Under the pieces are notes generated by a model that was not told the DNA's origin, made no database searches, and saw only the letters and a program-made list of their open reading frames with translations. Positions 6-49,385 of a DNA stretch of 49,658 bases are shown piece by piece; the stretch's first letter is position 1, and the number at the start of each line of letters is the position of its first letter. Source of the stretch: a virus; the IMG/VR virus record IMGVR_UViG_3300026078_000036, positions 1-49,658 of that record; one strand, 5' to 3'. Both the position numbers and the translations under genes were made by a program.

Positions 6-971
6 TTAAAATGTTTCTGCGTTAGGGTCCTCTTCTACTACAGGCGTTTGCACATCGGGGGACGGTGCCGGGTCCTCGTCGTCCTCCCTCATAATGGTAT
101 ATTCTGCCAGTGGCGTTTCGTCGACGTCGAAATCCTTAGCGCCTGCATTTTCGTTTATTTTGACGATTTTAAGGTTAATGTCGCGCTCCATAACTGACTG
201 CGGAATGAGCTTTGAGTTATAAGCGTGTTTGATAACCGTTTTTCGCCATGATTGTGCCTCATCGCTCACCCACATAGGGACCTCTAAGTCTACCTGATAT
301 GTTTCTTGTCCGCCGCTTTTATATTTAGTGATCTTGCCCCCGTTTTTATCTGCGATAGGCTTGTCTTTTAAATATTGCTTATAAGACTGACTACGGTTGT
401 CGCGGATATTATAAACATCTACATCATTCATTATGAAGATTAGCGGGCGCGTAGTCGCCTTTAACTCTATCACAAAGTAAACGTGCGTGATTTTGCTTTC
501 TTTGGTGCGGTTGCCCGGCTTGTGTTTCGTTATTTTTTTAAAGGGCATCACTTCGTAGTCGAATTCGTCGCAATCGTATACGACTTCGGGCTGATGGGCA
601 AATTGAACATTCGGATTGTCCTGTATTTGCTTTAATCGGCCTTTCCATCCTACCTGAAAAGTGAGCTTTGAACCCATCGCAATTAAATACCCCTCCCCCT
701 CATGAAGGGTAACGCCTGAAAGATTTAGCATTACTGCTGCTTCATAAACGCTAAACCGGTCGGTAACCTTTGAACATGCACGATCTGCGAGGTATTTATT
801 AAATAACAACCTTTCCAGCTCGTAACGCTGTTCCGCCTCTTCGGGACTCACGCCCCTTGTTTTAACGGCGGTCTGTATCCAGTTATCCTTTACCGCGTCG
901 TCGTTAATTACGGCCTCATTGGACTGAAGGGCCATAATACCCTTGTACGTTAATTCTAATTTGTTAGACAT
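6..971 (-). CDS. recT: RecT-family single-strand annealing protein
   Basis: A 321-residue protein of the RecT/Redbeta superfamily. It would coat single-stranded DNA left by a 5'-3' exonuclease and anneal it to a complementary strand during phage recombination. The RecT core is visible: VGWKGRLKQIQ near residue 108, VVYDCDEFDYEV near 131, a HKPG motif near 150, and a C-terminal WRKTVIKHAYNSKLIP stretch near 243, typical of RecT. The last 50 residues are acidic and probably disordered. The ATG at 971 lies about 25 bases after a Bacteroidota-type promoter with -7 at 1003-1010. The likely nuclease partner is the RecE-like gene at 47710-48405 and the likely single-strand partner is ssb at the right edge. 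Family call is firm; substrate details are inferred from the family. Confidence 0.88.
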   Translation of the reverse strand: MSNKLELTYKGIMALQSNEAVINDDAVKDNWIQTAVKTRGVSPEEAEQRYELERLLFNKYLADRACSKVTDRFSVYEAAVMLNLSGVTLHEGEGYLIAMGSKLTFQVGWKGRLKQIQDNPNVQFAHQPEVVYDCDEFDYEVMPFKKITKHKPGNRTKESKITHVYFVIELKATTRPLIFIMNDVDVYNIRDNRSQSYKQYLKDKPIADKNGGKITKYKSGGQETYQVDLEVPMWVSDEAQSWRKTVIKHAYNSKLIPQSVMERDINLKIVKINENAGAKDFDVDETPLAEYTIMREDDEDPAPSPDVQTPVVEEDPNAETF

Positions 972-1002
972 ATACTTTTGTTTTTGGTTATATCTTAAAG
1001 CT

Positions 1003-1080
1003 CAAAGTTACACAATCCGGTTAAACTTCCAAATATTTTTGCAAATATTTTTGAGAATACATTTTTCCGGCGTATCTTTG
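1003..1080. promoter_or_regulatory. Divergent promoters with tandem operator (recT / rightward cluster)
   Basis: Two divergent Bacteroidota-type promoters share one AT-rich operator. Leftward (recT): -33 as CAAA at 1030-1033, 19-bp spacer, -7 TAACTTTG read on the minus strand at 1003-1010. Rightward: TTTG at 1050-1053, 19-bp spacer, TATCTTTG at 1073-1080. The operator at 1030-1053 is two abutting copies of CAAATATTTTTG, a slightly degenerate form of the CAAATATATTTG pair found at other promoters here. It overlaps both -33 boxes, so one bound regulator could block both directions. A copy of the TTGAGCTTT motif (as AAAGCTCAA) overlaps the recT -7 region at 997-1005. Confidence 0.75.
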
Positions 1081-1101
1081 AGGCATAAAAATAACAGATA
1101 T

Positions 1102-1338
1102 ATGGCAGCACTTAATCACATTTTAAACATTCGTAAGCTGGCGGAGCTGGCAACCGGCGAAAAAATGAGCAATGTATATTACCAGCTCAACGACGCCGTT
1201 AAGGGAAACACTTCAGCAATCGACATTAGGACGATTAGGCAGGTTAAAGGTATTATGCAGACCAAACACGCTGAATCTATCGCTTTTTTAAATAACTTAG
1301 AAAAGGATATTAAAAAGCGCGAAAGCTCAAAGAAATAG
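1102..1338 (+). CDS. Small basic protein, first gene of rightward cluster
   Basis: A 78-residue lysine-rich protein that I do not recognise. The ATG at 1102 was chosen because it lies 22 bases after the -7 box at 1073-1080; an upstream extension of the frame would run through the promoter and operator. It is predicted to be mostly helical, with a stretch near residues 10-30 that could be a small helix-turn-helix, but I see no diagnostic motif. The stop is preceded by a copy of AAAGCTCAA at 1322-1330, inside the last codons. As the first gene behind an operator-controlled promoter divergent from recT, a regulatory role is possible but unproven. Confidence 0.7.
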   Translation: MAALNHILNIRKLAELATGEKMSNVYYQLNDAVKGNTSAIDIRTIRQVKGIMQTKHAESIAFLNNLEKDIKKRESSKK

Positions 1339-1366
1339 CTTATTCTTCACTATTAAATAAAATCAC

Positions 1367-1906
1367 ATGGAACGACACCACCTTTTGCCGGACCTGGAAC
1401 CGGACCAGCTCGCCGCATGGATTATTCGTAACTCTGTAGGCGAGCCGCAACAGGACGAGCGCAAAACATACTACTCCGACGAAGAAAAGGCGGAGATGGA
1501 ACACGAAAGCAGCAATAGCGGGCGCGAACTGGGCCGTCTTAAAGCTATTGAAAAGCAGGTTAAAGACTACATAAAAAAGGGCAACCTTACTGAAAAGCCT
1601 ATCACTATTGTAATACCTGTAACGATTGGCGTAGACGCACTGGACCGCAACCGCTCGCAGAATTACAGCAACCTTGAAAAAGGATACGATGTTGAGCGCG
1701 TTGAGCTTTACCGTGTCCCTAATCCGTCAGAAAAGACGATGGAATTCTTTTCTATCGACGGCAATCACTTTGCCGACCGTACAACCGGCATGTCGCAAAA
1801 AGAAATCCGTCAGTATTGCGGCCTTTATGTCGATCATTCTACCGGCGCTAAATTTGATGGCGATGGCGTGATTCACGAAGACGACGCGGCGGCCGCTGGA
1901 TTCTAA
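1367..1906 (+). CDS. Hypothetical protein, 179 residues
   Basis: A soluble acidic protein of unknown function, second gene of the rightward cluster, 28 bases after its neighbour. The N-terminal third is charged and probably helical (DEEKAEMEHESS near residues 38-49). The middle carries a beta-rich stretch (KPITIVIPVTIGVDALD near 77-93), and the tail ends in an alanine-rich acidic patch. No membrane segment or signal peptide is seen. The ATG at 1367 fits the spacing. It probably shares a transcript with the genes at 1102 and 1954, ending at the terminator near 2747. Confidence 0.7.
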   Translation: MERHHLLPDLEPDQLAAWIIRNSVGEPQQDERKTYYSDEEKAEMEHESSNSGRELGRLKAIEKQVKDYIKKGNLTEKPITIVIPVTIGVDALDRNRSQNYSNLEKGYDVERVELYRVPNPSEKTMEFFSIDGNHFADRTTGMSQKEIRQYCGLYVDHSTGAKFDGDGVIHEDDAAAAGF

Positions 1907-1953
1907 CACAATGTTTAAAAGCTCAAACAATCACCTTAAAACCACTTAACAAA

Positions 1954-4801: not shown

Positions 4802-4812
4802 TTTTTGAGCTT

Positions 4813-5043
4813 TTAAATGTCGAAAACGTCGTTTGTATATGAAGCCGGAACGCTCCCGTTTGTAAGGAACCACGGCAACTCATTGAAAGTGTGTATTCCG
4901 TCGCCAACTTTCATTCGGGGAGTAGTCAAAGGGTCCGCCAGTGCTATTTCGCCCTTCAGCAACAATGTGTCGGTTGCTTCCCATTCTGCCGTGGTTGCGG
5001 TCTTGTTCATGACCCGCGCATTTACGATAACCATATCCGCCAT
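4813..5043 (-). CDS. Mtd N-terminal-like small tail protein
   Basis: A 76-residue protein matching the domain at the N-terminus of the Bordetella phage major tropism determinant and many tail fibres: a basic start with an alternating pattern (VNARVMNKTATTAEWEA), LLLKGEIALADP, then RMKVGDGIHTFNELPW. In other phages this module anchors or starts a receptor-binding protein. Here it is a separate gene just before the tailspike, so it may act as an adaptor or be a detached N-terminal domain. The stop lies 11 bases before the tailspike ATG. No reverse transcriptase or variable repeat of a diversity-generating element is present. Confidence 0.7.
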   Translation of the reverse strand: MADMVIVNARVMNKTATTAEWEATDTLLLKGEIALADPLTTPRMKVGDGIHTFNELPWFLTNGSVPASYTNDVFDI

Positions 5044-5892: not shown

Positions 5893-5903
5893 CCTTTGAG
5901 CTT

Positions 5904-6797
5904 TTAAAACAGTGGTTCGATAATGACCTGCATTGTGTCATATATATTTGGTGCTAATACCTCGCCGCCAATGTACCCACGCCCAGGCGTGCCGAAGGTA
6001 TCGACGAGGTCCGGACTGCCGGACTGCCGAACGACCATTCTATGAGGCGGCAACGGGTCCAGATGAACGTCATAAACGCCTAATTTATCGGCTAAACCTG
6101 ACGGCATTTTTACTGTTATGCTTTGATTTGCCATTAAATAGATGCGATACTGATATGTATCTACGCCGACCGTTACTTCAGCGATGAACGGGGAAACAAC
6201 GTCACTATTATTAATGATAGTGACGTTTGCTGTAAGTGCTATAAGCGGGCAAAACCGCATGTCTTGCGCTGGTAATACCTGATCAGCATCGGGTATTGTA
6301 TTGTCTACAATAACCAGCGGAATAACCGGCTCGTTGCTGTCCTGGTATATCTTGTATCGTTCCATCCATGTCACAATACCGGTATTTGTGCCGCCTGATA
6401 ATGTACATGTCGCCGAAGGCGGGTAGCCTATCCAGTTCGTGAAGCGTTCGCCTATGTCTATGGTCAGGATACCTTCGTTTGATTGATGGCCCGCCTTATC
6501 CTTGAACTTATATTTTATGAGCTTTGCGCCGCTATCGTTTTTACTGTCGGCGTAATATATCACCTTCTGGCGCTTCAGGGAAAATACGGGCCTTGTTGAG
6601 GGCGGAGTATCCATGTAAACTTCGATTGTCGATTCGTCAACGCCATATGTGGCCGTTACGTACGGCAACAGGTCTATTTCGTATTGAAGTTGCCCCCCTT
6701 GCGGGTAACCATGTGTATGATTACCCGCAATAACGTCGAAAGGTGCTTTTGTAAAAGCACCGTCCCATATTAAAAAGTTATTTTTATTTAGAATCAT
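5904..6797 (-). CDS. Putative tail-tip/baseplate protein, 297 residues
   Basis: A beta-rich protein of unknown fold, probably virion structural. The ATG at 6797 overlaps the TGA of the upstream gene (stop 6794-6796) by four bases in an ATGA arrangement, favouring it over the longer frame starting at 6818. It contains proline- and glycine-rich loops (GNHTHGYPQGGQLQ; FGTPGRGYIGGEVL) and a conserved-looking ERFTNWIGYPPSATC stretch. Translational coupling to the 813-residue tail protein suggests the two are made in fixed ratio for the same substructure. No enzymatic motif is visible. Confidence 0.65.
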   Translation of the reverse strand: MILNKNNFLIWDGAFTKAPFDVIAGNHTHGYPQGGQLQYEIDLLPYVTATYGVDESTIEVYMDTPPSTRPVFSLKRQKVIYYADSKNDSGAKLIKYKFKDKAGHQSNEGILTIDIGERFTNWIGYPPSATCTLSGGTNTGIVTWMERYKIYQDSNEPVIPLVIVDNTIPDADQVLPAQDMRFCPLIALTANVTIINNSDVVSPFIAEVTVGVDTYQYRIYLMANQSITVKMPSGLADKLGVYDVHLDPLPPHRMVVRQSGSPDLVDTFGTPGRGYIGGEVLAPNIYDTMQVIIEPLF

Positions 6798-9235: not shown

Positions 9236-12200
9236 TATCCGTTACCTCCTATACTGTTACGCGTTCTTTGTTTTGTTACGGCTAAGTTACCGTAAACAAC
9301 GGTCTTTGTTAGGCCCCTTTCTGTTATGTTTGTCACGCTTACGGGTATATCCTTAACCGCAATCTTAAAGGCGTTCGTTAACGCTTCCTTGCTAAAGCTG
9401 TTACGTGTCATAGCTTCAGCGAACAGGCGATCGCTTGCCGCCCGGTTATCAGCTGCGACCTTATTTCCCAGGAACAATGAACGGATTACGGACGTAGTGT
9501 CTTCGGTATTAACTATGTCACGTAAAAGCTGTTGGGATTGGCTCGCGGTGTGAACTTTTTCGCCTTTATCTAACCATGTATAACCGCGCTTTCCCTCGTT
9601 GGCGACGCGGAACTTTCCGTCTTTCTCCAAAAGCTCAAAGCCCCGTTCGTTCACCTCTGCAACTTCTGCCGGGCCGCCTTGACGACCTTTGTAGTAAGAT
9701 GGGATAGGTTTTGCCAGCACTGCCGCGATCTGAAGCGCACCCAGTGCGGCCGCAAATGCTGCAAACGGCATACCGCCAGTAATCGGAAATTCCGCCACTG
9801 CCTTTGAAATGGCAATCGCAGTGTTTAATCCAATTTGGAACACGGCCCCCAGCTTGTCGGCGATAGCTTGCTTACGCTTTTCTTTGGCGATAGCCCGGTT
9901 ATATTGCTCTTCTATCTTCTTTTTAGCGTCGGCGTTATCCCCTGCAATCTCTATTTCCCTGTCGCGGGCGTTTTCAAGGTTTTGTATACGTCCGTCACTA
10001 AGGCCGCCTAAAATATCCTGAAGGGACGAAGCAGCATTCGCCGCAAAATCAAATGTCGCCTGTTCAAGCATCTCTTTTTTCTGCTTAACCTCTTCAGCTT
10101 TAGCTATCTCATAGGCCGTTGATTCATCCACAAGGTCTTTTTTGAGCTTATAAAGATTGGCGAGGCCCTTATAATAATCTTCGTCATTGGTCGCCATCTT
10201 GTCTAAGGCTTCCTGCTGTCGTTTTATCTGATTATCCAGGTCGTCTTTTCGAGCGCCGAAGATTAGATCGTCGCCCTGCTGTTTTGTTATTTCGCCGGAC
10301 GCAACGCGCTTTTTAATACCATTGGTGGTGGCCGATACACCCAGTTCGCCCCGTGCAGTTTCCGCACGGCCTCTGGCGTCTTCGCGCTTTTGCAGCTTTT
10401 CTGCTGTCTTTTCCCGCTCCCGTTGTTCTTTATCGTTTATTTTATTGATAGCTTCCAGGTGATCAGATTCCGCCCGTGCCTTCTCTGCTAATATGCGCTT
10501 ATAGTCGTCTGAATCCCTTTTATATAGCTTCAGGCGTATGTCGAATGATTTTTCCAGTACTTCCAGTTTCTTGTCTTCAAAATCTCTCTGGTCATCATAT
10601 GAGCGCTGACCCATGTTATACTCTAACTCATATTGCGCAACCTGCATTTTAGCGTTAGCCTGGGCGATCTTATCGGCCGCCTGCTGTGCTTCACGGGCTA
10701 ATGTTTCCGGCGATTTGCCCTTCTTTGTTTTCATCATCCCTTTCAAAATCTTGTCAGGGTCCAGGGCGTCAAGCTCCTTTTGCGTTTTTGCTATTTCCCG
10801 AAGGACTGCCAGAAAGTCTTTACTGTTGCTGTTGGTATTATCACGGGCAATGTTTAGTAAACGCATTTTTTCATTCAACCCCGCCACTGTTGCCGTGCTA
10901 ACCTTCAGGGCATTTTCAAAGGCGTGCTGAATCTCGACAACCTTTTCCCCTGAAGCGTTTAAAGCGCCGTAACGATCCTGAAGAGCTTTAAGCTGCGGGT
11001 CGAACTCGTCGTTAATCTCCTTCATGTTGGCCGCCATCGCATCGGCGTTACTTTTAGCTGCTGCATTTGCACCACGGGCAAGGCCGCCCAATCCGCCGCC
11101 ACTGAATAGGTTGGTAAAGCTACCGGCTAAAATTCCTTTTGTTTTTTGCCAGAAGGTAAGGTCTTTTGCCTGATTAGCTAAACGCTCTTTATCGACGGTT
11201 AATTCGTCGATCTTTACCTTTAGTTGGTCTTTTATGAGCTTTATTTTCTCTTCCAACATCTTCCGCTCTTCCTGTGATAGGTTTATCCAGTTCTTTATCT
11301 GTTGGTTTATGTCTTCGTAAGCCTGTGTATATACATCGTATACTACCGTTAATTTTCTAGTCAATTCAGCCTTACGCTCTTCTATTTCGATCTGCCTTTC
11401 TGAAGCGTCGGAATATGCAACAATGGCGGCTACCAAAGCTGTAATAACAACTATTGCAGCCCCCAGGGGATTTGCCGCAACGGCAATATTCCACAATCGC
11501 TGCGCAGCAGTAGCTAAAGTAATGGAGCCGGTCGCCGCATTTGTCAGGGTGATGTAAATCGCCTGCGCTGTGATTGCCGCTTCAGTGGCGACGGTATTCG
11601 CCACCCTTGCAACAGTATTTGCGATGGTAACAACTGTATTTTTAACCCATAAAGCCGATGCGACGATAAGTTCCTGATTGAATAACGCATAAACGCCCGC
11701 CAGGATAACAACAAGGGCTTTATGTTCTGAAAGGAATTTACCGGCGTCTTTAGTCGCCTCAATGGTGGCGATCATTCCTTTAACAATGCTATTGAAAAAG
11801 TTACTCAATCCTGCGTCCTGCGTGAGCTCTGTGATTGCATTTTTGAGCTTTGATATATTGGCCGCTAACCCATCTGATGCTGCGGCTACGCCTGGGCTAA
11901 ATACACGATCCAGGTTTTGCGCGAATGGTTTTAGCATTTCGCTACTTACTTCGCCTGATTTAAGCATCTTGTCGAGTTGCGCCGTAGTAACGCCGATACC
12001 ATCAGCAAACAGTTTAAACGCACCGCTCAAACGGTCGCCCAGCTGTCCGCGCAGCTCTTCTGCCTGCACCTTGCCTTTAGAAATCATTTGAGAAAGTGCG
12101 TTAAAGACCCCCTGCTGCTGATCTACAGAAATTTTCATTACTGTGGATGCTTTGGCAACGGCCAAAAAGATACGTCGCGTTTCTTCTCCTTCAAAGTTGG

Positions 12201-14962: not shown

Positions 14963-15268
14963 CTATCCCTGACGCTGGCAAAAAAACCGGGACAAGACGG
15001 AACAGCACAAAGCTAAAGCAAAAATAAAGGCCACCTGCGCTACTTCAAAGCTCAATAATTGGGACCAGATAGCCCAACCGTAGCACGCCAGAAGTTCTGC
15101 AAACGAAGCCCAAAAAAGGATACAAAAGTCGCATTCGTGTGATGGCATCCACCTTTTACGGCGTAATCCATACCATTCATGTAATCCCCACTTATGAAAA
15201 AGCACATTACCTGCACAATTCAGCAGGGCGAAAAAAACCACGGCTATAAAAACGGTCGTGAGCTGCAT
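14963..15268 (-). CDS. Small membrane protein with CDFC motif
   Basis: A 101-residue protein with three hydrophobic segments, at about residues 3-24, 47-68 and 75-93. Between the first two is a basic, tryptophan-rich loop followed by SHECDFCILFW, a Cys-x-x-Cys at the membrane border like that of some DUF1360-type phage membrane proteins. It lies between the lipoprotein and the chaperone-like gene. A role in lysis or superinfection control is possible; nothing more can be shown from sequence. Confidence 0.6.
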   Translation of the reverse strand: MQLTTVFIAVVFFALLNCAGNVLFHKWGLHEWYGLRRKRWMPSHECDFCILFWASFAELLACYGWAIWSQLLSFEVAQVAFIFALALCCSVLSRFFCQRQG

Positions 15269-15273: not shown

Positions 15274-15801
15274 TTAACGTTTACGCGAAAATAACAAATA
15301 AGTTGATAACGCGCCCCACGCCAGGAGCGCCCAAAACCATATGTAAGTATAAAAGGGCTGCGGCTCCGTCACCTTTACGGTCTTCCCTGGTACGGTGACC
15401 AACTTTTCATACGGCACACTTACCGGCACTCTTATGATCTGCGGCTTAACATCTATTGCGGCGGATACTTTACCGTGCCGATCTTTTTTTATTGATACCT
15501 GGACGGCACTATCCTTGTAGATGTAAGCTTCCGGCTTTTGCCCTGCTGTCTTCAGGGAATCAATAACGCGCAATAGGCTATCCATGTCAACGCCGGGTGT
15601 TTCCACGGTGATTGCTGGCGTTTCCACAGCTACAATGGCCCGCGCTGTGTCTTTTATCAATGTATCAACGTTCTGCCGGGCGATAATGGTCGGGTCCAGC
15701 TTGACCGCCCTTTTTAAATGCTTCTGCGCCAGCTGCTCTGGCGTCATGCAGGCAGCAAATAGCGAAATAATCGCAAAGCTCAAATAAAGTAATACTTTCA
15801 T
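15274..15801 (-). CDS. Lipoprotein, possible outer-membrane spanin-like protein
   Basis: Taking the ATG at 15801 gives 175 residues starting with a lipoprotein signal peptide (MKVLLYLSFAIISLFAAC) with Cys18 as the likely lipidated residue. The body is charged with CMTPEQLAQKHLKRAVKLDP and proline/valine-rich segments, and the C-terminus carries a second hydrophobic segment (FYTYIWFWALLAWGALSTYLLF) ending in basic residues. Lipid anchor at one end and membrane helix at the other is the topology of a unimolecular spanin that joins the two membranes at lysis. The immediately preceding gene encodes a membrane-anchored coiled coil. Spanin role is inferred. Confidence 0.65.
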   Translation of the reverse strand: MKVLLYLSFAIISLFAACMTPEQLAQKHLKRAVKLDPTIIARQNVDTLIKDTARAIVAVETPAITVETPGVDMDSLLRVIDSLKTAGQKPEAYIYKDSAVQVSIKKDRHGKVSAAIDVKPQIIRVPVSVPYEKLVTVPGKTVKVTEPQPFYTYIWFWALLAWGALSTYLLFSRKR

Positions 15802-23182: not shown

Positions 23183-23184
23183 AA

Positions 23185-27189: not shown

Positions 27190-27193
27190 GTGT

Positions 27194-27361: not shown

Positions 27362-27362
27362 G

Positions 27363-29578: not shown

Positions 29579-29803
29579 TTAGTCAATAATTAAGTATTTG
29601 TAAAGGGAATCACCCAACCACATGCAGCAGCGCACGTAAGTATTCAAGCTGGGCTTTTCCGTACCGTCGATAACATGTGAAAGAACTATATACGGAACGC
29701 CGATTTGTCCGGCCGCCAGATGCGGCGACAAGTCCTTCGCCGTGATCCGTGCCTTAATTGCTTCGCGTAGCAGGTCGTAACTGCAAACGTCATTTACTAC
29801 CAT
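29579..29803 (-). CDS. XRE-type helix-turn-helix repressor candidate
   Basis: A 74-residue DNA-binding protein of the Cro/CI type: helices at about 10-20, 23-32 and 35-44 with LREAIKARITAKDLSPHLA, then GQIGVPYIVLSHVIDGTEKPSLNTY, a classic XRE pattern. The ATG at 29803 is preferred to a TTG at 29863 because the latter would lie inside the operator, and the promoter at 29820-29851 puts the transcript start about 10 bases before 29803. It sits divergent from the rightward cluster with the operator between, so it likely represses both directions and itself. It is the best candidate reader of the tandem CAAATATATTTG sites found before most transcription units. Confidence 0.75.
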   Translation of the reverse strand: MVVNDVCSYDLLREAIKARITAKDLSPHLAAGQIGVPYIVLSHVIDGTEKPSLNTYVRCCMWLGDSLYKYLIID

Positions 29804-29819: not shown

Positions 29820-29911
29820 TAAAGGTAATAATCATACCGGACATTAACAAATATATTTTCCAAAATATTTGCAAATATATTTGGATAGTTTGAGCTTTTG
29901 ATTTATCTTTG
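29820..29911. promoter_or_regulatory. Divergent promoters with operator at the repressor gene
   Basis: Rightward: -33 TTTG at 29880-29883, 20-bp spacer, -7 TATCTTTG at 29904-29911, ATG 29932. Leftward: -33 as CAAA at 29848-29851, 20-bp spacer, -7 as TAAAGGTA (minus strand TACCTTTA) at 29820-29827, ATG 29803. The operator at 29861-29883 (tandem CAAATATATTTG with one base missing in the first copy) overlaps the rightward -33 and lies just upstream of the leftward -33. A TTGAGCTTT motif sits in the rightward spacer at 29890-29898. The layout matches a genetic switch. Confidence 0.75.
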
Positions 29912-30732: not shown

Positions 30733-31086
30733 ATGGCAGCAACTAAAAAAAGTAATCATATATCAGGGCAACAGATGCGGTGGCGCGTCAATACGTTCGC
30801 CCTTTTTAAGGAGATCCTTATAAACGAGCAATGCGCTATACTCAAAATGCCTTTAAATATACTCATGGGTATTTTACAGGAAGTGGCCGCCCGTTCATTG
30901 GAGCTTAACGACCCACTATTGACGGCCTTAATGTGTCGCCTTGCGCTTTATGAGCAGGCGGACCCATATAGCAAAGAGTATGCAGGGGGCAAGGCTATTA
31001 GCTCGGTAATAGAACAGGGATATAAAAAGACAATCACACCCAAAAGCTCAAAAAATGCAAATACCAACAGCAAAAGAAACGCTTAA
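30733..31086 (+). CDS. Hypothetical protein, 117 residues
   Basis: A basic helical protein, second in the rightward cluster. The central region (MPLNILMGILQEVAARSLELNDPLLTALMCRLALYE) is strongly amphipathic helix; ends are lysine-rich. It may bind nucleic acid or a partner, but no family is recognised. Its 3' end holds the motif AAAAGCTCAAAA at 31042-31052 and overlaps a possible 23-codon frame starting at 31055. A short hairpin (GGCCG...CGGCC) lies in the gap before it. Confidence 0.6.
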   Translation: MAATKKSNHISGQQMRWRVNTFALFKEILINEQCAILKMPLNILMGILQEVAARSLELNDPLLTALMCRLALYEQADPYSKEYAGGKAISSVIEQGYKKTITPKSSKNANTNSKRNA

Positions 31087-31137: not shown

Positions 31138-31494
31138 ATGGAAAAAGTAGTCTACACGCTGGAAGAACTGGCGGAATTTTCAGAAGAACACCCGTATCAC
31201 TGCCATACGGCCAATTATTACAGCAATGATGCGTCTACAACGATCGACCTGTTTGCCGACTTCATTGCCGAATATGACGACGCGGATACTGATATGAATC
31301 TAGTTTTCCGGTACGACATAGAGAAGGAAGAGCGAAGCGGTTACTATCGCCTTACGGTCTTCTTTATGGGTCAGCGTAAGGGGATCTACTGGTCCGTAAC
31401 GGTGAAGGTAGTAACGGAACCTGACGCGCCGCGCCTTTGCGAATTCCTTCAGAAGCACTTCGCCACACTGAAGGCTATTATTACTCCTTTTTAA
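31138..31494 (+). CDS. Hypothetical acidic protein, 118 residues
   Basis: An acidic protein (VVYTLEELAEFSEEHP; FIAEYDDADTDMNL) with a beta-rich second half containing GYYRLTVFFMGQRKGIYW. Strong acidity and small size are typical of phage DNA-mimic or anti-restriction proteins, but the pattern is not specific enough to claim that. It lies within the early rightward cluster; the ATG is preceded by an AAAACTCAAA variant of the recurrent motif. Role unknown. Confidence 0.6.
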   Translation: MEKVVYTLEELAEFSEEHPYHCHTANYYSNDASTTIDLFADFIAEYDDADTDMNLVFRYDIEKEERSGYYRLTVFFMGQRKGIYWSVTVKVVTEPDAPRLCEFLQKHFATLKAIITPF

Positions 31495-31504
31495 AGCTCA
31501 AAAC

Positions 31505-33876: not shown

Positions 33877-33928
33877 TAAAGATACGTTGAGCTTTTGACG
33901 TTTCCAAATATATTTGCAAATATATTTG
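33877..33928 (-). promoter_or_regulatory. Promoter with perfect tandem operator
   Basis: Leftward promoter: -33 CAAA (plus strand) at 33905-33908, 20-bp spacer, -7 TAAAGATA (minus strand TATCTTTA) at 33877-33884. The operator at 33905-33928 is two perfect copies of CAAATATATTTG. TTGAGCTTTT lies in the spacer at 33887-33896. It drives the genes at 33845 and below. Confidence 0.8.
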
Positions 33929-33930: not shown

Positions 33931-34653
33931 TTATTTAGGCACCAGGTCGCTTTCTTCTTCGGTATAGTTGCGGCCATTGTCGGGTATATAGATTTGCACC
34001 TGGGCTTTTGTCTTCTGAAGATTATCGGCCTCGTAATATCCGGTATGCTTCGCCAGCATATCCAGGGCGGCGTCCTTACTGTGTAGTTGGAATTCGATAC
34101 CGTGGCGACCCTGCTTTAACGATTTGATCAGGTGACCGTTACGGCCCTTTAATAGACGTTCAAAGCTCAAATCCTGAACGGTCAATTTCTTTGCATCTTC
34201 CCTGCTCATACCTCCCCGGACAAGTTCGTCCCGGACCTGTTCGGGCGTCTTTAACTGGGCAAGCTGGGCCGCATCACTAAAGGCGATAATCATAAGCTCG
34301 TTTGTAATACGGTCGTGAATGTCCTTACGCTCTTCTTTAATCTCTGCCTTACGCTGTTCCAGGTAGGCGGAAACGCGGGGCTTCTTTAAAAGCTCATTAG
34401 CATAGGATGACGGATTCTTATTATCGAATCCGGCTTCCCTTACTGCTTCGGCCTTATTGAAATGGAAAAGATAGTTTTCGATAAACGATATTTCGGCGTC
34501 TGTAATGTCTTCGGCAGGCACTTTGCCGCCTTTGCGCAATTTATCGGGGTTGCCCGGTGCCGGTTTGCGCTTTACTTTTACCTGAAGTTTGCCGGGCTTT
34601 CCTGTCACTTTGTTGCCCTGACTATCGGAAAACCCCTTTTTCGCTTTAGTCAT
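33931..34653 (-). CDS. terS: Terminase small subunit
   Basis: A 240-residue protein with a basic N-terminal tail and the terminase-2-type helix-turn-helix region (ITDAEISFIENYLFHFNKAEAVREAGF, about residues 55-80, then SSYANELLKKPRVSAYLEQ) that recognises phage DNA. The ATG at 34653 overlaps the stop of the upstream gene (ATGA). It lies three bases downstream of the tandem operator and 8.4 kb away from terL, with the early rightward cluster, the repressor and replication genes between. Such a distance is unusual. The C-terminal part carries an oligomerisation helix and an acidic tail. Confidence 0.82.
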   Translation of the reverse strand: MTKAKKGFSDSQGNKVTGKPGKLQVKVKRKPAPGNPDKLRKGGKVPAEDITDAEISFIENYLFHFNKAEAVREAGFDNKNPSSYANELLKKPRVSAYLEQRKAEIKEERKDIHDRITNELMIIAFSDAAQLAQLKTPEQVRDELVRGGMSREDAKKLTVQDLSFERLLKGRNGHLIKSLKQGRHGIEFQLHSKDAALDMLAKHTGYYEADNLQKTKAQVQIYIPDNGRNYTEEESDLVPK

Positions 34654-35996
34654 AATGGTGCAATTGTTCCACTGCAAATTTGCATCTTTTCCAGCAGATA
34701 GGCGACCCCGTCATTTTCCCGGATCATTTTTTCCAGGCTCGCCTTAAGGCGCTCGTCTTCGCAATACACCTTTGGGCCATTACTGAAGTCTGTATCGACC
34801 TGGAACGGGACTTCGCCCATTGATCGACGCTTATCGATTAGCGCCTTATTTTGGGCGGCTGGCGTTGGCGGCGGGGTAACCTTCGGCATAACCGCTGGCG
34901 CGTCGGTGCCGGGTAGCCGGAAGGCGGAGAAATTAGGTTTATCGTAACGGGGTGGTGGCGGTTGTAGGATCAGAAAGTCGCCCAAATCTGAACCGTCGTC
35001 AAGTTCTGGCGCTGGATCAAAAAAAGACACGCGGCAACCAATGGCACGCAGGCGAACGGCGGCACTTTCATAATCTCCCACGATTTCGCCTTCAGGATGC
35101 GTGCGGCGGACGAGCTTTTGCATCTGCTCGCCCCTCACTGTTATGGTCGCCATCACCTCTTTTTTTCGCATCGGCAGCACGCCCCAGGTGGCACGTGCTG
35201 CAAACGAGAAGTCGGGACATAATACCACTTCACGGCCTCGCAATGGCTCTATTTTGTCGCGAACCAATCCTTCAGAGCCGGACGAGGCCATCCATACGAC
35301 GGGGCGACCCTGCCAAAACGGCAAATATCCTGACGCAATAACGGCAGTTTTTTCACTCTCTACCAGAGCGATTAACGCATCTGCCGGAGCATCCCAAAGT
35401 TGATGCAGACCAAACAGGCATGTACTATATCCCTCCTCTATGGTGAATAAGCGTTTGGGCTGCGTCTTCTCGAAAGGCTCACCGCCTCCAGGCTTCAGGC
35501 GCTTGCCATTGGCACCGTAAAAGATGCGCTGGGCCGTACGAGGCCGCAGGCGTTCGTCTATTTGCCAAAACGCTGTTCCGCCTCCTTTTGTAGTTCCTAC
35601 GTAAAACAGGAACACTAAGCGCATAGCTTCAGTAGCTCCAAACAGGCCGATAAGGTATTGCACCAACACGTTACTATCATAACCGGTAAGCGTCGCCTTA
35701 ACGATGGCCTTATCGACCGGATTGATTACTGCCTTCGGCGGTTCGTGGCGCTTATAATCCTTTGAGCTTTTACGCTCCGCACTGTGCGCCTGTTCCATAT
35801 CCTCGAAGGGATGAAGGAAATATCCGCAGTGGTCCTGCCGATCACATCGGCCGTATTCTTCCGGCAGATACTCTTTATCGTTAAAGTTGTAGTAACGCAC
35901 AAACCGGCGCTTTCTACAGGCCGGACAGATATGCTTTTTCGCTGCGTGGCCTTGTACGGACTTATCCAGTGCAACGCCGTTAATGAGTGTACCCAT
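34650..35996 (-). CDS. DUF6371-like zinc-ribbon/TOPRIM primase-like protein
   Basis: A 448-residue protein starting with a zinc ribbon: C24, C27, C51 and C57 in HICPACRKRRFVRYYNF and YGRCDRQDHCGYF, the layout of DUF6371 proteins in Bacteroidota phages and mobile elements. Downstream lies a TOPRIM-type core: ALVESEKTAVIASG with E212/E214 near residue 209 and VVLCPDFSF with D261. This would give a primase-related catalytic core. The C-terminal third is proline-rich and probably disordered. It lies downstream of a strongly structured noncoding region, as expected of a replication initiator next to an origin. Primase activity is inferred. Confidence 0.7.
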   Translation of the reverse strand: MGTLINGVALDKSVQGHAAKKHICPACRKRRFVRYYNFNDKEYLPEEYGRCDRQDHCGYFLHPFEDMEQAHSAERKSSKDYKRHEPPKAVINPVDKAIVKATLTGYDSNVLVQYLIGLFGATEAMRLVFLFYVGTTKGGGTAFWQIDERLRPRTAQRIFYGANGKRLKPGGGEPFEKTQPKRLFTIEEGYSTCLFGLHQLWDAPADALIALVESEKTAVIASGYLPFWQGRPVVWMASSGSEGLVRDKIEPLRGREVVLCPDFSFAARATWGVLPMRKKEVMATITVRGEQMQKLVRRTHPEGEIVGDYESAAVRLRAIGCRVSFFDPAPELDDGSDLGDFLILQPPPPRYDKPNFSAFRLPGTDAPAVMPKVTPPPTPAAQNKALIDKRRSMGEVPFQVDTDFSNGPKVYCEDERLKASLEKMIRENDGVAYLLEKMQICSGTIAPL

Positions 35997-36216: not shown

Positions 36217-36597
36217 CTATTTATTTTCCGCCTGTTGTGCTGCGGTATAAGCTAAACGGTAAAATCCCTTCTTTTCACGTACTATGTACCCGTAAGACTT
36301 CAAAAGCTCAAAGAATCCGCCTTTAATCTTCACCTTAGTAAGCCCTATCTTATACCGGCGAGAGAGCGCCAGCATAAGCGAATCGTAAGACAAAAGCGTC
36401 TTGCTGTCGAATACCTGTTTTGCGATGTTCCAGTGTTCCGTCTTTGTATATTGTTCCGGGTTTGGATTGATCCGGGGCTTTGGTTTGGCCTTGCGCTTTG
36501 GCTCCTGATAGAACGAAATGCCGGGGGTAATAATGCGCAGTTCCATTATAACTGTTTGATCATTCAGTTTAACGGTAAGTAGTTGTTTATTAGACAT
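36217..36597 (-). CDS. Winged-helix-like protein, 126 residues
   Basis: A basic protein. The N-terminal half is beta-rich and ends in a lysine/proline linker (RKAKPKPRINPNPEQ); the C-terminal half (WNIAKQVFDSKTLLSYDSLM ... KGGFFELLKSYGYIVREKKGFYRL) looks like a small winged-helix DNA-binding domain. It lies next to the structured element at 36000-36216 and could regulate or bind it. No family name is claimed. Confidence 0.55.
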   Translation of the reverse strand: MSNKQLLTVKLNDQTVIMELRIITPGISFYQEPKRKAKPKPRINPNPEQYTKTEHWNIAKQVFDSKTLLSYDSLMLALSRRYKIGLTKVKIKGGFFELLKSYGYIVREKKGFYRLAYTAAQQAENK

Positions 36598-36943: not shown

Positions 36944-36995
36944 CAAAGATACGTTGAGCTTTTGGATTTTCCAAATATATTTGCAAATATATTTG
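36944..36995 (-). promoter_or_regulatory. Promoter with perfect tandem operator
   Basis: Leftward: -33 CAAA at 36972-36975, 20-bp spacer, -7 CAAAGATA (minus strand TATCTTTG) at 36944-36951, ATG 36922. The operator at 36972-36995 is two perfect CAAATATATTTG copies flanked by symmetric TTTC/GAAA, so this is the most symmetrical site in the window. TTGAGCTTTT lies in the spacer at 36954-36963. Confidence 0.85.
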
Positions 36996-38243: not shown

Positions 38244-38253
38244 TTTTGAGCTT

Positions 38254-38445
38254 TTAAAAGTGTTTAAATTGTTTACACGCGGCGGCCTGCAATGTCACCG
38301 AAGAGGCGGTCGGGTGGTCTTTTGTTAGCCTGTCGTCGCCGCCCCTTGCGCATTTGTGGATAACCCGTTTACCCTCGTATATTCTACGAAGATGCAGACA
38401 GTCTTTGCAACGGGCAATCATGCCGGAATAAATTACCTGTGTCAT
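38254..38445 (-). CDS. Small zinc-ribbon protein
   Basis: A 63-residue protein with Cys13, Cys16, Cys32 and Cys57 in ARCKDCLHLRRIYEGKRVIHKC and AACKQF, a likely single zinc site. Small zinc proteins of this type occur widely in phage early regions with unknown role. The start at 38445 is the first ATG after the neighbouring frame. Confidence 0.6.
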   Translation of the reverse strand: MTQVIYSGMIARCKDCLHLRRIYEGKRVIHKCARGGDDRLTKDHPTASSVTLQAAACKQFKHF

Positions 38446-39151: not shown

Positions 39152-40133
39152 ACTCGTAAATTTGTAGCCTTGTTTCGTTAATCTTGTTTAGGTCGTAGTG
39201 CTGGCGAACGTGTTCGGCGAGCTGTGCGCCCTTCTCTTTCCTGAAGGTAGAATCGTACACCATTCTTTCTATTTGTGTGGCCCAAAAACCAGGCGTAGAT
39301 GCGTATTCAACGGCTGTACAATCCTTGTCATTAAGATAGGGAAGCATCCCGGAACATATAATAGGTATTCCTTTTGCGCCAGCTTCCAGGACCTTTAGAT
39401 TAGACTTATTCATATTGAATAGATTGTCAGCCAGCGGGGCAATAGCAAACCCGTGTCCATCATAGCTATTCATGTAGTCGTGTACGGGTCGCGCGTTCTT
39501 AAACTCAAATCCCGGCCGGTCATCAAACATAATACCTATGCGCTCCCATTCATGCGCATGGTTCGGGTCCTTACCGGCTATCGTAAAGCTCAAAGGTTCC
39601 TTTTCGGTAAGATATTCCATTGCTTCTGCAATAACCATCAGGTCGAGCCTGTGCGATGCGCCACCTGCATATATCATTCGGCCGGTATCGATGCCGCCCG
39701 TTGTATCCCTGGTAAATTGCCCTTTATCGAACGGCAAGCCGTTAGGAATTACGAATGTTTGCTGGTTGTATGGCCGTATGAGCTGCGCTAAATTTTCAGT
39801 GGCACAGGTCACCGCGTTAGCGTGCCGGATGATCTTAATAACCTGACCAGCGTAATCTGAATGGTCCCAGTGCTGCTTCAGGTAATGGCCGGGGTATAAC
39901 GACCAAAAGTCGTCTAAATCGACGATATACTTAAACCCGATACGGCGGCGCTCTTCCAGAAAAACGCCTACCGGGATCGTGGGTAACCGGTTAAAGATAA
40001 CCAGGTGTTCGCCGGTTACTTCCGGTGTGCCGTCGCTTTCTGGAATACCGGCCACCTGTAACGGCAGCCGGATTCTATGATAATCGCATGAAACGCCCGG
40101 ACGCACTGCGGGCCATAGTTTGAGCTTTGACAT
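39135..40133 (-). CDS. Glycosyltransferase, GT4-like (GT-B fold)
   Basis: A 332-residue GT-B enzyme. The N-terminal domain has VIFNRLPTIPVGVFLEE and YIVDLDDFW motifs, the C-terminal domain shows FVIPNGLPFDKGQF and the donor-binding motif NKSNLKVLEAGAKGIPIICS near residue 251. Such phage proteins may decorate DNA, virion or host surface. The gene is in a tight cluster with two other transferases (one-base overlap with the GT2 gene). Confidence 0.85.
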   Translation of the reverse strand: MSKLKLWPAVRPGVSCDYHRIRLPLQVAGIPESDGTPEVTGEHLVIFNRLPTIPVGVFLEERRRIGFKYIVDLDDFWSLYPGHYLKQHWDHSDYAGQVIKIIRHANAVTCATENLAQLIRPYNQQTFVIPNGLPFDKGQFTRDTTGGIDTGRMIYAGGASHRLDLMVIAEAMEYLTEKEPLSFTIAGKDPNHAHEWERIGIMFDDRPGFEFKNARPVHDYMNSYDGHGFAIAPLADNLFNMNKSNLKVLEAGAKGIPIICSGMLPYLNDKDCTAVEYASTPGFWATQIERMVYDSTFRKEKGAQLAEHVRQHYDLNKINETRLQIYEYVAAK

Positions 40134-42116: not shown

Positions 42117-42383
42117 TTATTGAAGTTCTTTTAATCGTTTGTTGAGCTTTGAACGTCTGGATTTAAGGGCCTTCAGGATGACGGGGCGTAGCTCTTCTTC
42201 TATCTGCCTTGTGGCCTCGTGATACTCAAAGCTACCGAATTCGTTATTCGTTTCTTGTTCCAGGTCGTTAATTCTAACATTTATTTTTATCTTTTTTGCA
42301 TAAATAAGGCTGTCGATTGCCTCGTCTAGGCTGTCCAGCTCTTTGCAGATAATGTGCGCTTCAGTTACATTTTTTCTGTTCAT
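42117..42383 (-). CDS. Small charged coiled-coil protein
   Basis: An 88-residue helical protein with heavily charged C-terminus (RRSKLNKRLKELQ) starting at ATG 42383, just 24 bases after the -7 box at 42407-42414. A longer frame through the promoter is not credible. It is the first gene of the operator-controlled transcript that continues to the lipoprotein and glycosyltransferase cluster. Function unknown. Confidence 0.6.
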   Translation of the reverse strand: MNRKNVTEAHIICKELDSLDEAIDSLIYAKKIKINVRINDLEQETNNEFGSFEYHEATRQIEEELRPVILKALKSRRSKLNKRLKELQ

Positions 42384-42406: not shown

Positions 42407-42458
42407 CAAATGTAAGTTGAGCTTTTGAATTATCCAAATATATTTGCAAATTTATTTG
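42407..42458 (-). promoter_or_regulatory. Promoter with tandem operator for the glycosyltransferase cluster
   Basis: Leftward: -33 CAAA at 42435-42438, 20-bp spacer, -7 CAAATGTA (minus strand TACATTTG) at 42407-42414, ATG 42383. Operator at 42435-42458: CAAATATATTTG then CAAATTTATTTG. The deviating base provides the stop codon of the upstream ASCH gene. TTGAGCTTTT lies in the spacer at 42417-42426. Confidence 0.82.
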
Positions 42459-43030: not shown

Positions 43031-43043
43031 CATTTTTTGAGCT

Positions 43044-43463
43044 TTAAAACGGCGCGTCTTCGAGTTGTTCGCCGTTGTTAAATAATTCATCAGACCACAG
43101 GCGAGGACCGGGGCCGATGCTTTCAGGTGGCAAAGAGGTTGCGAGCTGGTCAAACAATGCAGTTTGAAGGTATCCGCCGTGTTGGATAATCTCCTGCTCT
43201 GTTACGCCCAGCTGTGAACGCATCTTTGTAATTACATCTTTCCTGGATAACGTCTTTTTGCTTTTAAAGATGACCTGCATACAGGCGCGCAGAGTAAGCG
43301 GGGAAACCTCCCGGCTCTCCATTGCCTTGCGCGATTCCTGCGGTCCGTCTTCGGTCTGATTTTCGTGCTTTTGTATATCAATCAATACGCCGGTAGGGAT
43401 ATGAAGCAGCGTTTTAGCGTCGAATATTAATTCGATGGCGTTCTGCATATATCTTTTATCCAT
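43044..43463 (-). CDS. Hypothetical protein, 139 residues
   Basis: A helical soluble protein (RKAMESREVSPLTLRACMQV; KTLSRKDVITKMRSQLGVTEQEII) with a C-terminus ending in an acidic LEDAPF. The DAPF end recalls the acidic tip of SSB-type interaction peptides but is shorter. It is between the RepA-like ATPase and the ASCH gene, so may be a replication accessory. No domain is recognised. Confidence 0.55.
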   Translation of the reverse strand: MDKRYMQNAIELIFDAKTLLHIPTGVLIDIQKHENQTEDGPQESRKAMESREVSPLTLRACMQVIFKSKKTLSRKDVITKMRSQLGVTEQEIIQHGGYLQTALFDQLATSLPPESIGPGPRLWSDELFNNGEQLEDAPF

Positions 43464-46680: not shown

Positions 46681-46735
46681 AAAGTAAGATTGAAAGGATT
46701 TGGAAATAGCGGTTTGTCTTTTGAGCTTTCGGGTA

Positions 46736-47416: not shown

Positions 47417-47418
47417 TG

Positions 47419-47475: not shown

Positions 47476-47479
47476 GCCG

Positions 47480-48405: not shown

Positions 48406-48838
48406 CGTCTTCAGATGTTGGGATATAGGCAAACCTTACCTGTCTATAAACAATTTTATCATGATCGGTGCAGAAGTATTTAAAGCCCTCATCTTCCTGA
48501 ATGAATTCGTCCGGCATGACTTCTGCCGGAATAACAGAAAGCGCATTTTTTAGTCTATCGAATGCGTCTGCCGCCTCTCCGGCAGCAGGACCCATTCCGC
48601 GCAAAGATGTGCCTAAATGCTCCATACTCTCGCGCACCAGTTGCAGCCCCCGCGCGTTAACCATGTTTGCTTTTAGCCTTCCCAGCTCCGCTTTATATGC
48701 GGATCGTGCATCGGCCTTGCGCTTTTCTATCGCCTTATTATACGCGATGAAAAAGAAAATGCAGATGCCAAAAAAGAAGATGGTAATAATACCGCCCACA
48801 ATCTGCGGAGTGTCCAGTAAGTATTCAAAATTTTCCAT
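48395..48838 (-). CDS. Membrane-anchored helical protein, 147 residues
   Basis: One N-terminal membrane segment (IVGGIITIFFFGICIFFFIAY at about 13-33), a charged coiled coil to about residue 70 and a soluble part with helical ends. It is coupled to the exonuclease gene by overlap. Possibly places recombination or replication at the membrane; unrecognised family. Confidence 0.6.
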   Translation of the reverse strand: MENFEYLLDTPQIVGGIITIFFFGICIFFFIAYNKAIEKRKADARSAYKAELGRLKANMVNARGLQLVRESMEHLGTSLRGMGPAAGEAADAFDRLKNALSVIPAEVMPDEFIQEDEGFKYFCTDHDKIVYRQVRFAYIPTSEDDEH

Positions 48839-48888
48839 AATGAGTGGCCGGGATTGTCCGCCCGGCGCGGAGTTTATAAGTTGCTAAA

Positions 48889-49113
48889 TCAGTTACGAAC
48901 GTCTAAAACAAACATGCGAGGTATCCGGTTAGGATTCTTTATTGTATCGTTGAAAGAGGCGACATAAATATCGATCATTTCCGGGCCTTCTTTAACCGAA
49001 GCTATTATCGCCAATGCTTCGCTATCCTGATATACTTTTGTATTTCCTATAAGGGCGGCCTTATGCGCTAGGCAAATAATACTTTCGCGGTCATCGGCGG
49101 TTGCGTTTCTCAT
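48889..49113 (-). CDS. Hypothetical protein, 74 residues
   Basis: A small soluble protein (RESIICLAHKAALIGNTKVY; EGPEMIDIYVASF; NRIPRMFVLDVRN) with alpha/beta pattern. It is between the membrane genes at the end of the window. No motif or family is seen. Confidence 0.55.
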   Translation of the reverse strand: MRNATADDRESIICLAHKAALIGNTKVYQDSEALAIIASVKEGPEMIDIYVASFNDTIKNPNRIPRMFVLDVRN

Positions 49114-49116
49114 GGA

Positions 49117-49311
49117 TTATTGATTGTTTATTTTAGAAAATACTACGCAGGCCATCATGAATATACCAACGATAAAGAATAGAATACCAGCAGCGGGCGC
49201 ACTGATTAAGCCAACAAAAAAAGATGCCAGGGCTACCACAGGCAGGCCGATAAAGGCAAATATCAGAAACTTTGCCAGTAATGATAAATCGTAATTCGCA
49301 TTGTTTTTCAT
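49117..49311 (-). CDS. Small membrane protein, 64 residues
   Basis: Two hydrophobic segments (about 14-36, KFLIFAFIGLPVVALASFFV, and 41-58, GILFFIVGIFMMACVVF). The ATG at 49311 lies 23 bases after the -7 box at 49334-49341; a longer frame would cross the promoter. First gene of the leftward transcript including the exonuclease. Function unknown. Confidence 0.65.
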   Translation of the reverse strand: MKNNANYDLSLLAKFLIFAFIGLPVVALASFFVGLISAPAAGILFFIVGIFMMACVVFSKINNQ

Positions 49312-49333
49312 GTCTTTATTGCTTTTGTTGAAA

Positions 49334-49385
49334 CAAAGATACTTTGAGCTTTTGGATTTTCCAAATATATTTGCAAATATTTTGG
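49334..49385 (-). promoter_or_regulatory. Promoter with tandem operator (exonuclease transcript)
   Basis: Leftward: -33 CAAA at 49362-49365, 20-bp spacer, -7 CAAAGATA (minus strand TATCTTTG) at 49334-49341. Operator at 49362-49384: CAAATATATTTG and CAAATATTTTG (one base short). TTGAGCTTTT lies in the spacer at 49344-49353. It follows the ssb terminator. Confidence 0.82.

What the first reader, a model, noticed from the sequence alone, without database searches (positions are those of the whole stretch)
207..49353. Genome-wide repeated asymmetric motif TTGAGCTTT(T)
By eye I count about 37 exact copies of the nine-mer TTGAGCTTT (22 as written, about 15 as AAAGCTCAA), while under one is expected by chance in 49.7 kb. 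Many extend to TTTGAGCTTTT. Copies sit (a) at a fixed place in the spacers of five or more promoters, (b) just upstream of many ATGs (for example 4801, 5892, 31505, 38243, 43030) and (c) inside unrelated genes in different frames. The scatter and both-strand use argue against codon bias. Known analogues are the stoperators of mycobacteriophage L5-type viruses, where repressor bound at dispersed sites silences the prophage; uptake or packaging signals are alternatives.
Basis: partly seen in the sequence, partly recalled or inferred. Interest (0 to 1): 0.85.

Follow-up and report, generated by a model that had tools for sequence, protein, structure and literature searches.

The report
Dispersed operator-like motif in Bacteroidota phage
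A phage that probably infects Bacteroidota carries about 60 near-identical copies of one short DNA word, in promoters, at gene starts and inside genes on both strands, most likely binding sites for an unidentified phage protein that dampens its transcription; this resembles the stoperators of mycobacteriophages but differs because the copies inside genes face either way.

Summary
In detail: TTGAGCTTT occurs 37 times (22 as written, 15 reversed) against about 1 expected. Re-derived, the motif is TTBNWAAGCTCAWW, with 61 WAAGCTCA sites. Codon bias does not explain it: genes hold 24 sense and 18 antisense copies, against 1.5 and 1.8 after synonymous-codon shuffling. Of the exact copies, 17/37 are intergenic in a genome about 9% non-coding. 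Six Bacteroidota-type promoters carry a copy in the spacer or on the -7 box, and about nine gene starts carry one, with its AAA on the phage's ribosome-binding A-tract at -12. Relatives (MCP up to 52% identical) and 296 Bacteroidota genomes show no comparable enrichment. Best reading: binding sites for an unidentified, probably phage-encoded, DNA-binding protein that represses at promoters and obstructs transcription elsewhere. It works like L5-type stoperators but is not shown to be one: in-gene copies are unoriented (24:18), whereas cluster A sites are almost all one-way (16/17 in the yardstick phage), and no integrase, partition gene or immunity repressor was recognised. The dispersed repeats of virulent phage T1 are an equally close analogue. 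New variant of a known kind; binding and function untested.

The parts
997..1005 (-). TTGAGCTTT on the -7 box (TAACTTTG) of the leftward recT promoter
1322..1330 (-). TTGAGCTTT copy, in gene 1102-1338
1701..1709 (+). TTGAGCTTT copy, in gene 1367-1906
1918..1926 (-). TTGAGCTTT copy, intergenic, 27 nt before gene 1954-2718
4805..4813 (+). TTGAGCTTT copy; AAAGCTCAA 3 nt upstream of ATG of 2777-4801 (tail spike)
5896..5904 (+). TTGAGCTTT copy; 3 nt upstream of ATG of 5056-5892, overlapping the upstream stop codon
9630..9638 (-). TTGAGCTTT copy, in gene 9235-13173 (position and length of a tape measure gene)
11843..11851 (+). TTGAGCTTT copy, in gene 9235-13173
15047..15055 (-). TTGAGCTTT copy, in gene 14963-15268
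15775..15783 (-). TTGAGCTTT copy, in gene 15274-15801
23039..23047 (-). TTGAGCTTT copy, intergenic, 4 nt before portal ATG (opposite orientation to other start copies)
23082..23090 (+). TTGAGCTTT copy, intergenic upstream of portal gene
24120..24128 (+). TTGAGCTTT copy, in terminase large subunit gene
24285..24293 (+). TTGAGCTTT copy, in terminase large subunit gene
25864..25872 (-). TTGAGCTTT copy, intergenic, leader of 25570-25836
26606..26614 (+). TTGAGCTTT copy, in gene 26290-26664
26781..26789 (-). TTGAGCTTT copy, in gene 26689-27189
27281..27289 (+). TTGAGCTTT copy, intergenic 27190-27362
29164..29172 (-). TTGAGCTTT copy, in topoisomerase-like gene 28433-29578
29890..29898 (+). TTGAGCTTT in spacer of rightward promoter of 29932-30687
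31043..31051 (-). TTGAGCTTT copy, in gene 30733-31086
31493..31501 (-). TTGAGCTTT copy; 3 nt upstream of ATG of 31505-31699, overlapping the upstream stop codon
33036..33044 (+). TTGAGCTTT copy, in gene 32897-33424
33887..33895 (+). TTGAGCTTT in spacer of leftward promoter of 33465-33845
34162..34170 (-). TTGAGCTTT copy, in terminase small subunit gene
35762..35770 (+). TTGAGCTTT copy, in DUF6371 gene
36303..36311 (-). TTGAGCTTT copy, in gene 36217-36597
36954..36962 (+). TTGAGCTTT in spacer of leftward promoter of 36656-36922
38246..38254 (+). TTGAGCTTT copy; 2 nt upstream of ATG of 37383-38243, overlapping the upstream stop codon
39585..39593 (-). TTGAGCTTT copy, in glycosyltransferase gene
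40120..40128 (+). TTGAGCTTT copy, at the 5' end of glycosyltransferase gene 39135-40133
42142..42150 (+). TTGAGCTTT copy, in gene 42117-42383
42417..42425 (+). TTGAGCTTT in spacer of leftward promoter of 42117-42383
43037..43045 (+). TTGAGCTTT copy; 3 nt upstream of ATG of 42452-43033, overlapping the upstream stop codon
46038..46046 (+). TTGAGCTTT copy; 12 nt upstream of helicase ATG (44334-46025), inside the preceding gene
46721..46729 (+). TTGAGCTTT copy, intergenic/leader near 46736
49344..49352 (+). TTGAGCTTT in spacer of the leftward promoter at 49364
206..213 (+). variant WAAGCTCA site in recT; one of 24 variant 8-mer sites. The others start at 662, 2933, 6518, 7433, 8087, 8300, 10143, 11235, 13832, 13892, 17078, 17164, 17533, 21706, 23463, 28042, 28453, 34389, 38807, 44231, 44614, 45105, 47446
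   Evidence: 8-mer start coordinates
29861..29883 (.). tandem palindromes CAAAATATTTG-CAAATATATTTG over the -33 box (separate, second element)
33905..33928 (.). tandem palindromes (CAAATATATTTG)x2
36972..36995 (.). tandem palindromes (CAAATATATTTG)x2
42435..42458 (.). tandem palindromes CAAATATATTTG-CAAATTTATTTG
49362..49385 (.). tandem palindrome-like pair CAAATATATTTG-CAAATATTTTGG
29579..29803 (-). small ORF (74 aa) that looks XRE-like by eye; candidate regulator, likelier partner of the palindromes than of this motif
   Evidence: reading of the translation; no family hit; AlphaFold model of low confidence

Best explanation
TTBNWAAGCTCAWW is the binding site of one sequence-specific DNA-binding protein, probably encoded by the phage and probably a monomer or a multi-domain chain because the site has no dyad symmetry. 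Where the site lies between -33 and -7, or on the -7 box, bound protein would occlude RNA polymerase (operator). Where it lies at stop/start junctions and inside genes, bound protein would hinder elongating polymerase (dispersed brake, stoperator-like). The orientation seen at gene starts follows from overlap with the phage's ribosome-binding A-tract at -12 and with TAA stop codons, not from a need for direction. Shown: number, specificity, placement, and independence from coding sequence and strand. Inferred: that a protein binds, that it is phage-encoded, that the result is repression. Unknown: which protein, and whether it serves lysogeny or timing of lytic genes.
For: 37 exact copies versus 1.09 expected; with a 15-column matrix 54 sites score at least 14 in the window versus 0-3 in 11 other phages and in Markov simulations, with few in between. 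Synonymous-codon shuffles give 1.5 sense and 1.8 antisense in-gene copies, observed 24 and 18, so the selected object is double-stranded DNA. Non-A at -2 and T-rich -4/-3 flanks recur in in-gene and intergenic sites. 17/37 exact copies are intergenic versus 9% non-coding, p=4e-9. Six of the seven clear Bacteroidota-type promoters (TTG-N19-21-TAnnTTTG, or TATCTTTA at 33887) that precede a gene and carry an AT-rich palindrome upstream also carry the motif in the spacer or on the -7 box. Start-proximal copies align with the A-tract (A at -12 in 55/61 genes), 6 exact versus 0.06 under column shuffle. No comparable enrichment in relatives or in 296 Bacteroidota genomes.
Against: No binding protein was identified: candidate small ORFs have no convincing family hit and the two structure models are of low confidence (pLDDT 45 and 48). 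No lysogeny genes were found. More than half of the sites are inside genes and unoriented, which a purely promoter-based repressor does not need. No homologous phage carries the motif, so there is no conservation test.
Confidence: 0.56

Rival explanations
1. True L5-type stoperators: an immunity repressor of a temperate phage binds the sites, stops initiation and, in one orientation only, elongation, silencing the prophage.
For: Asymmetric site, tens of copies, promoter copies plus short intergenic copies overlapping stop/start codons. Published features of cluster A sites are of this kind (PMC9283540, PMC6550527).
Against: In-gene orientation is unbiased, 24:18, while reversal abolishes L5 elongation repression (PMC9283540) and Jabith sites are 16/17 one way. 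No integrase, ParAB or repressor family was recognised.
Confidence: 0.14
2. A genome-wide mark with a mainly non-transcriptional role: nucleoid compaction, partition, self/non-self recognition, or a Chi-like recombination signal used with the phage RecT/exonuclease pair.
For: Both strands, 42 copies inside genes, spacing slightly more even than random (CV 0.80, P=0.05). The phage encodes RecT and a RecE-like exonuclease.
Against: Strong concentration in intergenic DNA, in promoter spacers and on the ribosome-binding A-tract is not expected of such marks; no strand bias of the Chi type; no similar motif in related phages.
Confidence: 0.17
3. Binding site of a host protein (host transcription factor, nucleoid protein or Chi) that the phage has accumulated.
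For: The host is unknown, so it cannot be excluded directly; no call supports it.
Against: None of 296 Bacteroidota genomes is enriched in an extended form (0-4 copies per genome); the 9-mer is near or below the reversed-word control in B. salyersiae and two MAGs; related phages lack it.
Confidence: 0.09
4. RNA-level element near start codons (translational operator or unusual ribosome-binding signal) whose DNA copies elsewhere are incidental.
For: Start-proximal copies have a nearly fixed 3-nt spacing and one orientation. Related phages P2559S and AS73P1 have other short words just before ATGs.
Against: 18 antisense in-gene copies versus 1.8 expected; copies in promoter spacers upstream of the start of transcription; fixed spacing follows from the A-tract at -12 shared by nearly all genes.
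Confidence: 0.04
5. Chance, codon bias or biased composition.
For: None found.
Against: Markov and synonymous-shuffle nulls give about 1-4 copies against 37-61; different frames and both strands.
Confidence: 0

Closest known systems
Stoperators of cluster A mycobacteriophages (L5, TipsytheTRex; monomeric immunity repressor)
   Same: Asymmetric short site, tens of copies through the genome, in promoters and in short intergenic gaps overlapping stop/start codons; highly conserved core.
   Different: More copies (37-61 versus 20-30 per genome, PMC6550527); majority inside genes; in-gene copies unoriented; no repressor or prophage-maintenance gene recognised; host phylum with different promoters; unrelated motif sequence.
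Dispersed 20-22 bp repeats of virulent Escherichia phage T1 and Citrobacter phage Stevie (PMC4319613)
   Same: Asymmetric, dispersed, about 20 copies (22 matches found here in T1), in phages without known lysogeny; role unknown.
   Different: Stevie/T1 repeats are longer, predominantly intergenic and oriented with transcription according to PMC4319613; sequence unrelated.
Dispersed asymmetric C1 operators of phage P1 (from general knowledge, not tested here)
   Same: Many asymmetric operators around the genome, bound by a repressor without needing dyad symmetry.
   Different: P1 operators are mainly at promoters and belong to a known repressor and plasmid prophage; no C1-like gene found here.
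Bacteroidota siphophages of the B40-8 / P2559S / 6H type (structural genes)
   Same: Portal 33-37% and MCP 35-52% identical, similar order of the virion genes.
   Different: None of those examined has this motif or an equally enriched dispersed word.

Membership tests
Cluster A (L5-type) stoperators | Short asymmetric site with a highly conserved core, in tens of copies across the genome | tested here: met
   61 WAAGCTCA sites, 17.3-bit matrix
Cluster A (L5-type) stoperators | Some sites are operators inside promoters | tested here: met
   placement in six predicted promoters; repression itself not tested
Cluster A (L5-type) stoperators | Remaining sites mainly in short intergenic spaces | tested here: inconclusive
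   17/37 exact copies intergenic (46%), but only 19/61 of all sites (31%); Jabith 11/17
Cluster A (L5-type) stoperators | Sites predominantly in one orientation relative to transcription | tested here: not met
   in-gene 24:18; all exact copies 24:13, p=0.10; Jabith 16/17 one way
Cluster A (L5-type) stoperators | Immunity repressor with N-terminal HTH and stoperator domain | tested here: inconclusive
   no repressor family hit among the ORFs scanned; a diverged repressor cannot be excluded and a few small ORFs were not scanned
Cluster A (L5-type) stoperators | Temperate phage with integrase or ParABS | tested here: inconclusive
   neither found in the PHROGs/Pfam scans; not every small ORF was scanned
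Cluster A (L5-type) stoperators | Repressor binding stops transcription elongation | not testable with these tools
   needs a reporter or in vitro transcription
T1/Stevie dispersed repeats | Asymmetric repeat, predominantly intergenic and oriented with transcription, in a lytic phage | tested here: not met
   asymmetric and dispersed, but 31-46% intergenic and unoriented in genes
P1 C1 operators | Sites bound by a C1-type repressor | not tested
   P1 was not fetched; comparison rests on general knowledge
Host-wide signal (Chi, uptake sequence) | Enriched in the host genome | tested here: inconclusive
   no enrichment in 296 Bacteroidota genomes, host itself unknown

The most novel reading that the evidence does not exclude
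An orientation-independent, genome-wide DNA mark read by a previously undescribed phage protein in a virulent Bacteroidota phage, which both turns down promoters and coats or brakes the whole genome: a dispersed-site control system that is not a lysogeny immunity system.
Probability: 0.3. Interest if true: 0.78.

Novelty: new variant of a known kind. Interest (0 to 1): 0.62.

Why it matters
Dispersed repressor sites are well studied mainly in cluster A mycobacteriophages; my full-text searches found no report of stoperators in Bacteroidota phages. A second, unrelated and undirected instance would show that genome-wide transcription braking evolved more than once and does not need oriented sites. 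It would also give a handle on the unexplained repeats of T1-type virulent phages, and a compact, orthogonal operator with matching promoters for Bacteroidota genetics.

Tried and rejected
Codon bias and chance. A family-wide motif: five relatives with MCP about 51% identical and more than 90 other relatives' loci searched, none has it. Other phages with the same motif found by DNA pattern: the promoter-spacer pattern gave no hit in IMG/VR; the start-codon pattern gave 89 stretches, none of those tabulated with a dense motif. Analogous private words in relatives: the strongest 9-mers were tandem arrays or local clusters (L050, L062, L065, L010, L060) or a palindrome (L102); GAGCTCA in the closest relative G008 has no conserved flank. 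Known RNA family: none at Rfam gathering thresholds. Identification of the binding protein through PDB, NCBIfam, PHROGs, Pfam and AlphaFold: nothing usable. DNA relatives among phages and plasmids: none. Regular spacing: only a weak trend (P=0.05).
Full report
What the sequence is. The window is a 49,658-base IMG/VR virus record with no tRNA, 47% G+C, and a siphophage-like gene set: portal, major capsid protein, terminases, a long tape-measure-like gene, endolysin, RecT-like annealing protein, RecE-like exonuclease, helicase, topoisomerase-like protein, primase zinc-finger fragment and glycosyltransferases. Its virion proteins are related to phages of Flavobacterium, Croceibacter, Bacteroides, Parabacteroides and Alistipes (portal about 33-37% identity; MCP up to 52% in IMG/VR contigs), and its promoters are of the Bacteroidota type TTG-N19-21-TAnnTTTG, so the host is very probably a member of the Bacteroidota. 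No DNA-level relative was found among phage records or, for the right half of the window, among plasmids.

The observation. An order-3 Markov model predicts 1.09 and the word read backwards occurs once. One-mismatch copies are near chance level except at the outer positions. Taking AAGCTCA as core and reading the flanks gave TTBNWAAGCTCAWW: 61 WAAGCTCA sites, with non-A at -2 (1 A in 61), T-rich at -4 and -3, and A-rich after the core. The same flanks appear in the 42 in-gene and the 19 intergenic sites. A matrix of 15 columns carries 17.3 bits; 54 sites in the window score at least 14 and only 71 score at least 8, whereas eleven other phages and simulated sequences have 0-3 sites at 14. The motif is therefore sharp, with few half-decayed copies.

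It is a DNA signal. Shuffling synonymous codons leaves 1.5 sense and 1.8 antisense copies in genes; observed are 24 and 18 (for the exact 9-mer 20 observed versus 0.65). Copies fall in different frames and different genes. A signal read in mRNA would not enrich the antisense copies, and copies in promoter spacers lie upstream of the start of transcription.

Where the copies are. Seventeen of 37 exact copies are intergenic although only about 9% of the sequence is non-coding by my gene list (p=4e-9; the list is hand-made from ORFs, so individual boundaries may be off). Six promoters carry a copy: 997, 29890, 33887, 36954, 42417 and 49344. In five it lies in the spacer next to the -7 box, in the sixth it overlaps the -7 box, and the orientation relative to the promoter is not constant. 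The only other clear palindrome-bearing promoter (1051, rightward) has none. About nine gene starts carry an exact or one-mismatch copy within a few bases of the ATG. These copies place their AAA on the A-tract that almost all genes of this phage have at -12 (A in 55 of 61 genes), and several overlap the stop codon of the preceding gene (TAAAAGCTCAANNNATG). The one-way orientation and nearly fixed 3-nt spacing at starts are thus explained by sharing bases with the ribosome-binding region and stop codon. Inside genes, where no such constraint applies, orientation is 24 with and 18 against transcription (p=0.44).

A second element. The same promoters carry tandem 12-bp palindromes CAAATATATTTG-CAAATATATTTGG over the -33 box. 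They look like operators of a dimeric regulator and are separate from the asymmetric motif. The small XRE-like ORF 29579-29803 faces one such pair and is a natural candidate for the palindromes; its HTH is my reading of the sequence and was not confirmed.

Relatives. Among about 100 related loci and the complete records of the closest ones, no phage record has more than three copies of the 9-mer. Searches of IMG/VR for the promoter-spacer pattern and the start-codon pattern found no other motif-rich phage. Of 296 Bacteroidota genomes spread over the phylum none shows enrichment of an extended form (that form occurs only twice in the window itself, so the test is coarse but would still expose a host enriched to the same degree, at over 100 copies).

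Mechanism. The simplest account is a phage protein that recognises the asymmetric site as a monomer or through two unequal domains. On promoter copies it would occlude RNA polymerase; on the others it would slow or stop elongation. Shown here are specificity, number, placement and strand independence. Binding, repression and the identity of the protein are inferred. Whether the purpose is prophage silencing or timing of lytic genes is open; no integrase, partition or immunity gene was recognised, which favours neither strongly because the small ORFs are orphans and not all were scanned.

Comparison. Cluster A mycobacteriophages have 20-30 sites bound by a monomeric repressor, oriented with transcription, and reversal abolishes the effect on elongation (PMC6550527, PMC9283540). 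In the cluster A phage Jabith, the same kind of scan gave 17 sites with at most one mismatch, 11 intergenic, 16 in one orientation. The window's sites meet the features of asymmetry, number and promoter placement, but not orientation, and no repressor or prophage genes were recognised. T1 and Stevie have 16-20 dispersed asymmetric repeats of unknown role in a lytic setting, described as intergenic and oriented (PMC4319613; 22 matches found in T1). The window is therefore a new variant of dispersed operator systems rather than a member of either set.

Confidence. That the motif is real and selected at the DNA level is close to certain. That it is bound by a sequence-specific protein is about 0.85. 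That the effect is repression/braking by a phage protein is about 0.56.

Noticed in passing
29861-29883, 33905-33928, 36972-36995, 42435-42458, 49362-49385, single copy near 26076 and half-copy before ATG 47416: Tandem 12-bp palindromes CAAATATATTTG over the -33 box of at least five promoters: a second regulon in the same phage, probably bound by a dimeric repressor or activator.
   Followed up: partly
upstream regions of 61 genes in the window: A very sharp A at -12 (55/61 genes), with A-rich -14 to -10 and T-rich -16/-15: this phage's Bacteroidota-type ribosome-binding signal.
   Followed up: yes
L016 (Croceibacter phage P2559S) 1506, 2005, 28258, 30680, 34174, 37398: ACCGAGAGC lies 1-4 nt before the ATG of six annotated genes; two copies follow a near-identical ttaatttagca...taattaaa stretch. 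AGAGCGATG occurs five times in Alistipes phage AS73P1 (L018), four of them at annotated starts, and five times in G016 (L122-L124). A start-codon motif of unknown meaning in related phages.
   Followed up: partly
L017, L018, L019 (TCUEAP2, AS73P1, BKO1-3): AGCT is almost absent (0-5 copies in 42-45 kb, 141-171 expected), suggesting avoidance of an AluI-like restriction site; the window instead has 252 versus 191 expected.
   Followed up: no
window ends (1-971 and 47710-49658): RecT (6-971) and the RecE-like exonuclease (47710-48408) would lie close together on one strand if the ends were joined, so the contig may be a complete circularly permuted genome, although no terminal repeat of 16-200 bases was found.
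   Followed up: partly
23034-23185: Two motif copies form an inverted pair (AAAGCTCAA...TTGAGCTTT, about 43 bp apart) in the gap before the portal gene.
   Followed up: no
L065 2205-2623: Eleven copies of ATTGTTTAC, many as inverted pairs, within about 420 bp of a related phage: possibly an origin or regulatory cluster.
   Followed up: no
L102 136, 3542, 5153, 8446, 9879, 12769: TTTCACGTGAAA-like dispersed palindrome (6 sites in 13.9 kb) in a related phage contig filed under a Bacteroidales MAG: possibly dispersed operators of a dimeric regulator.
   Followed up: no
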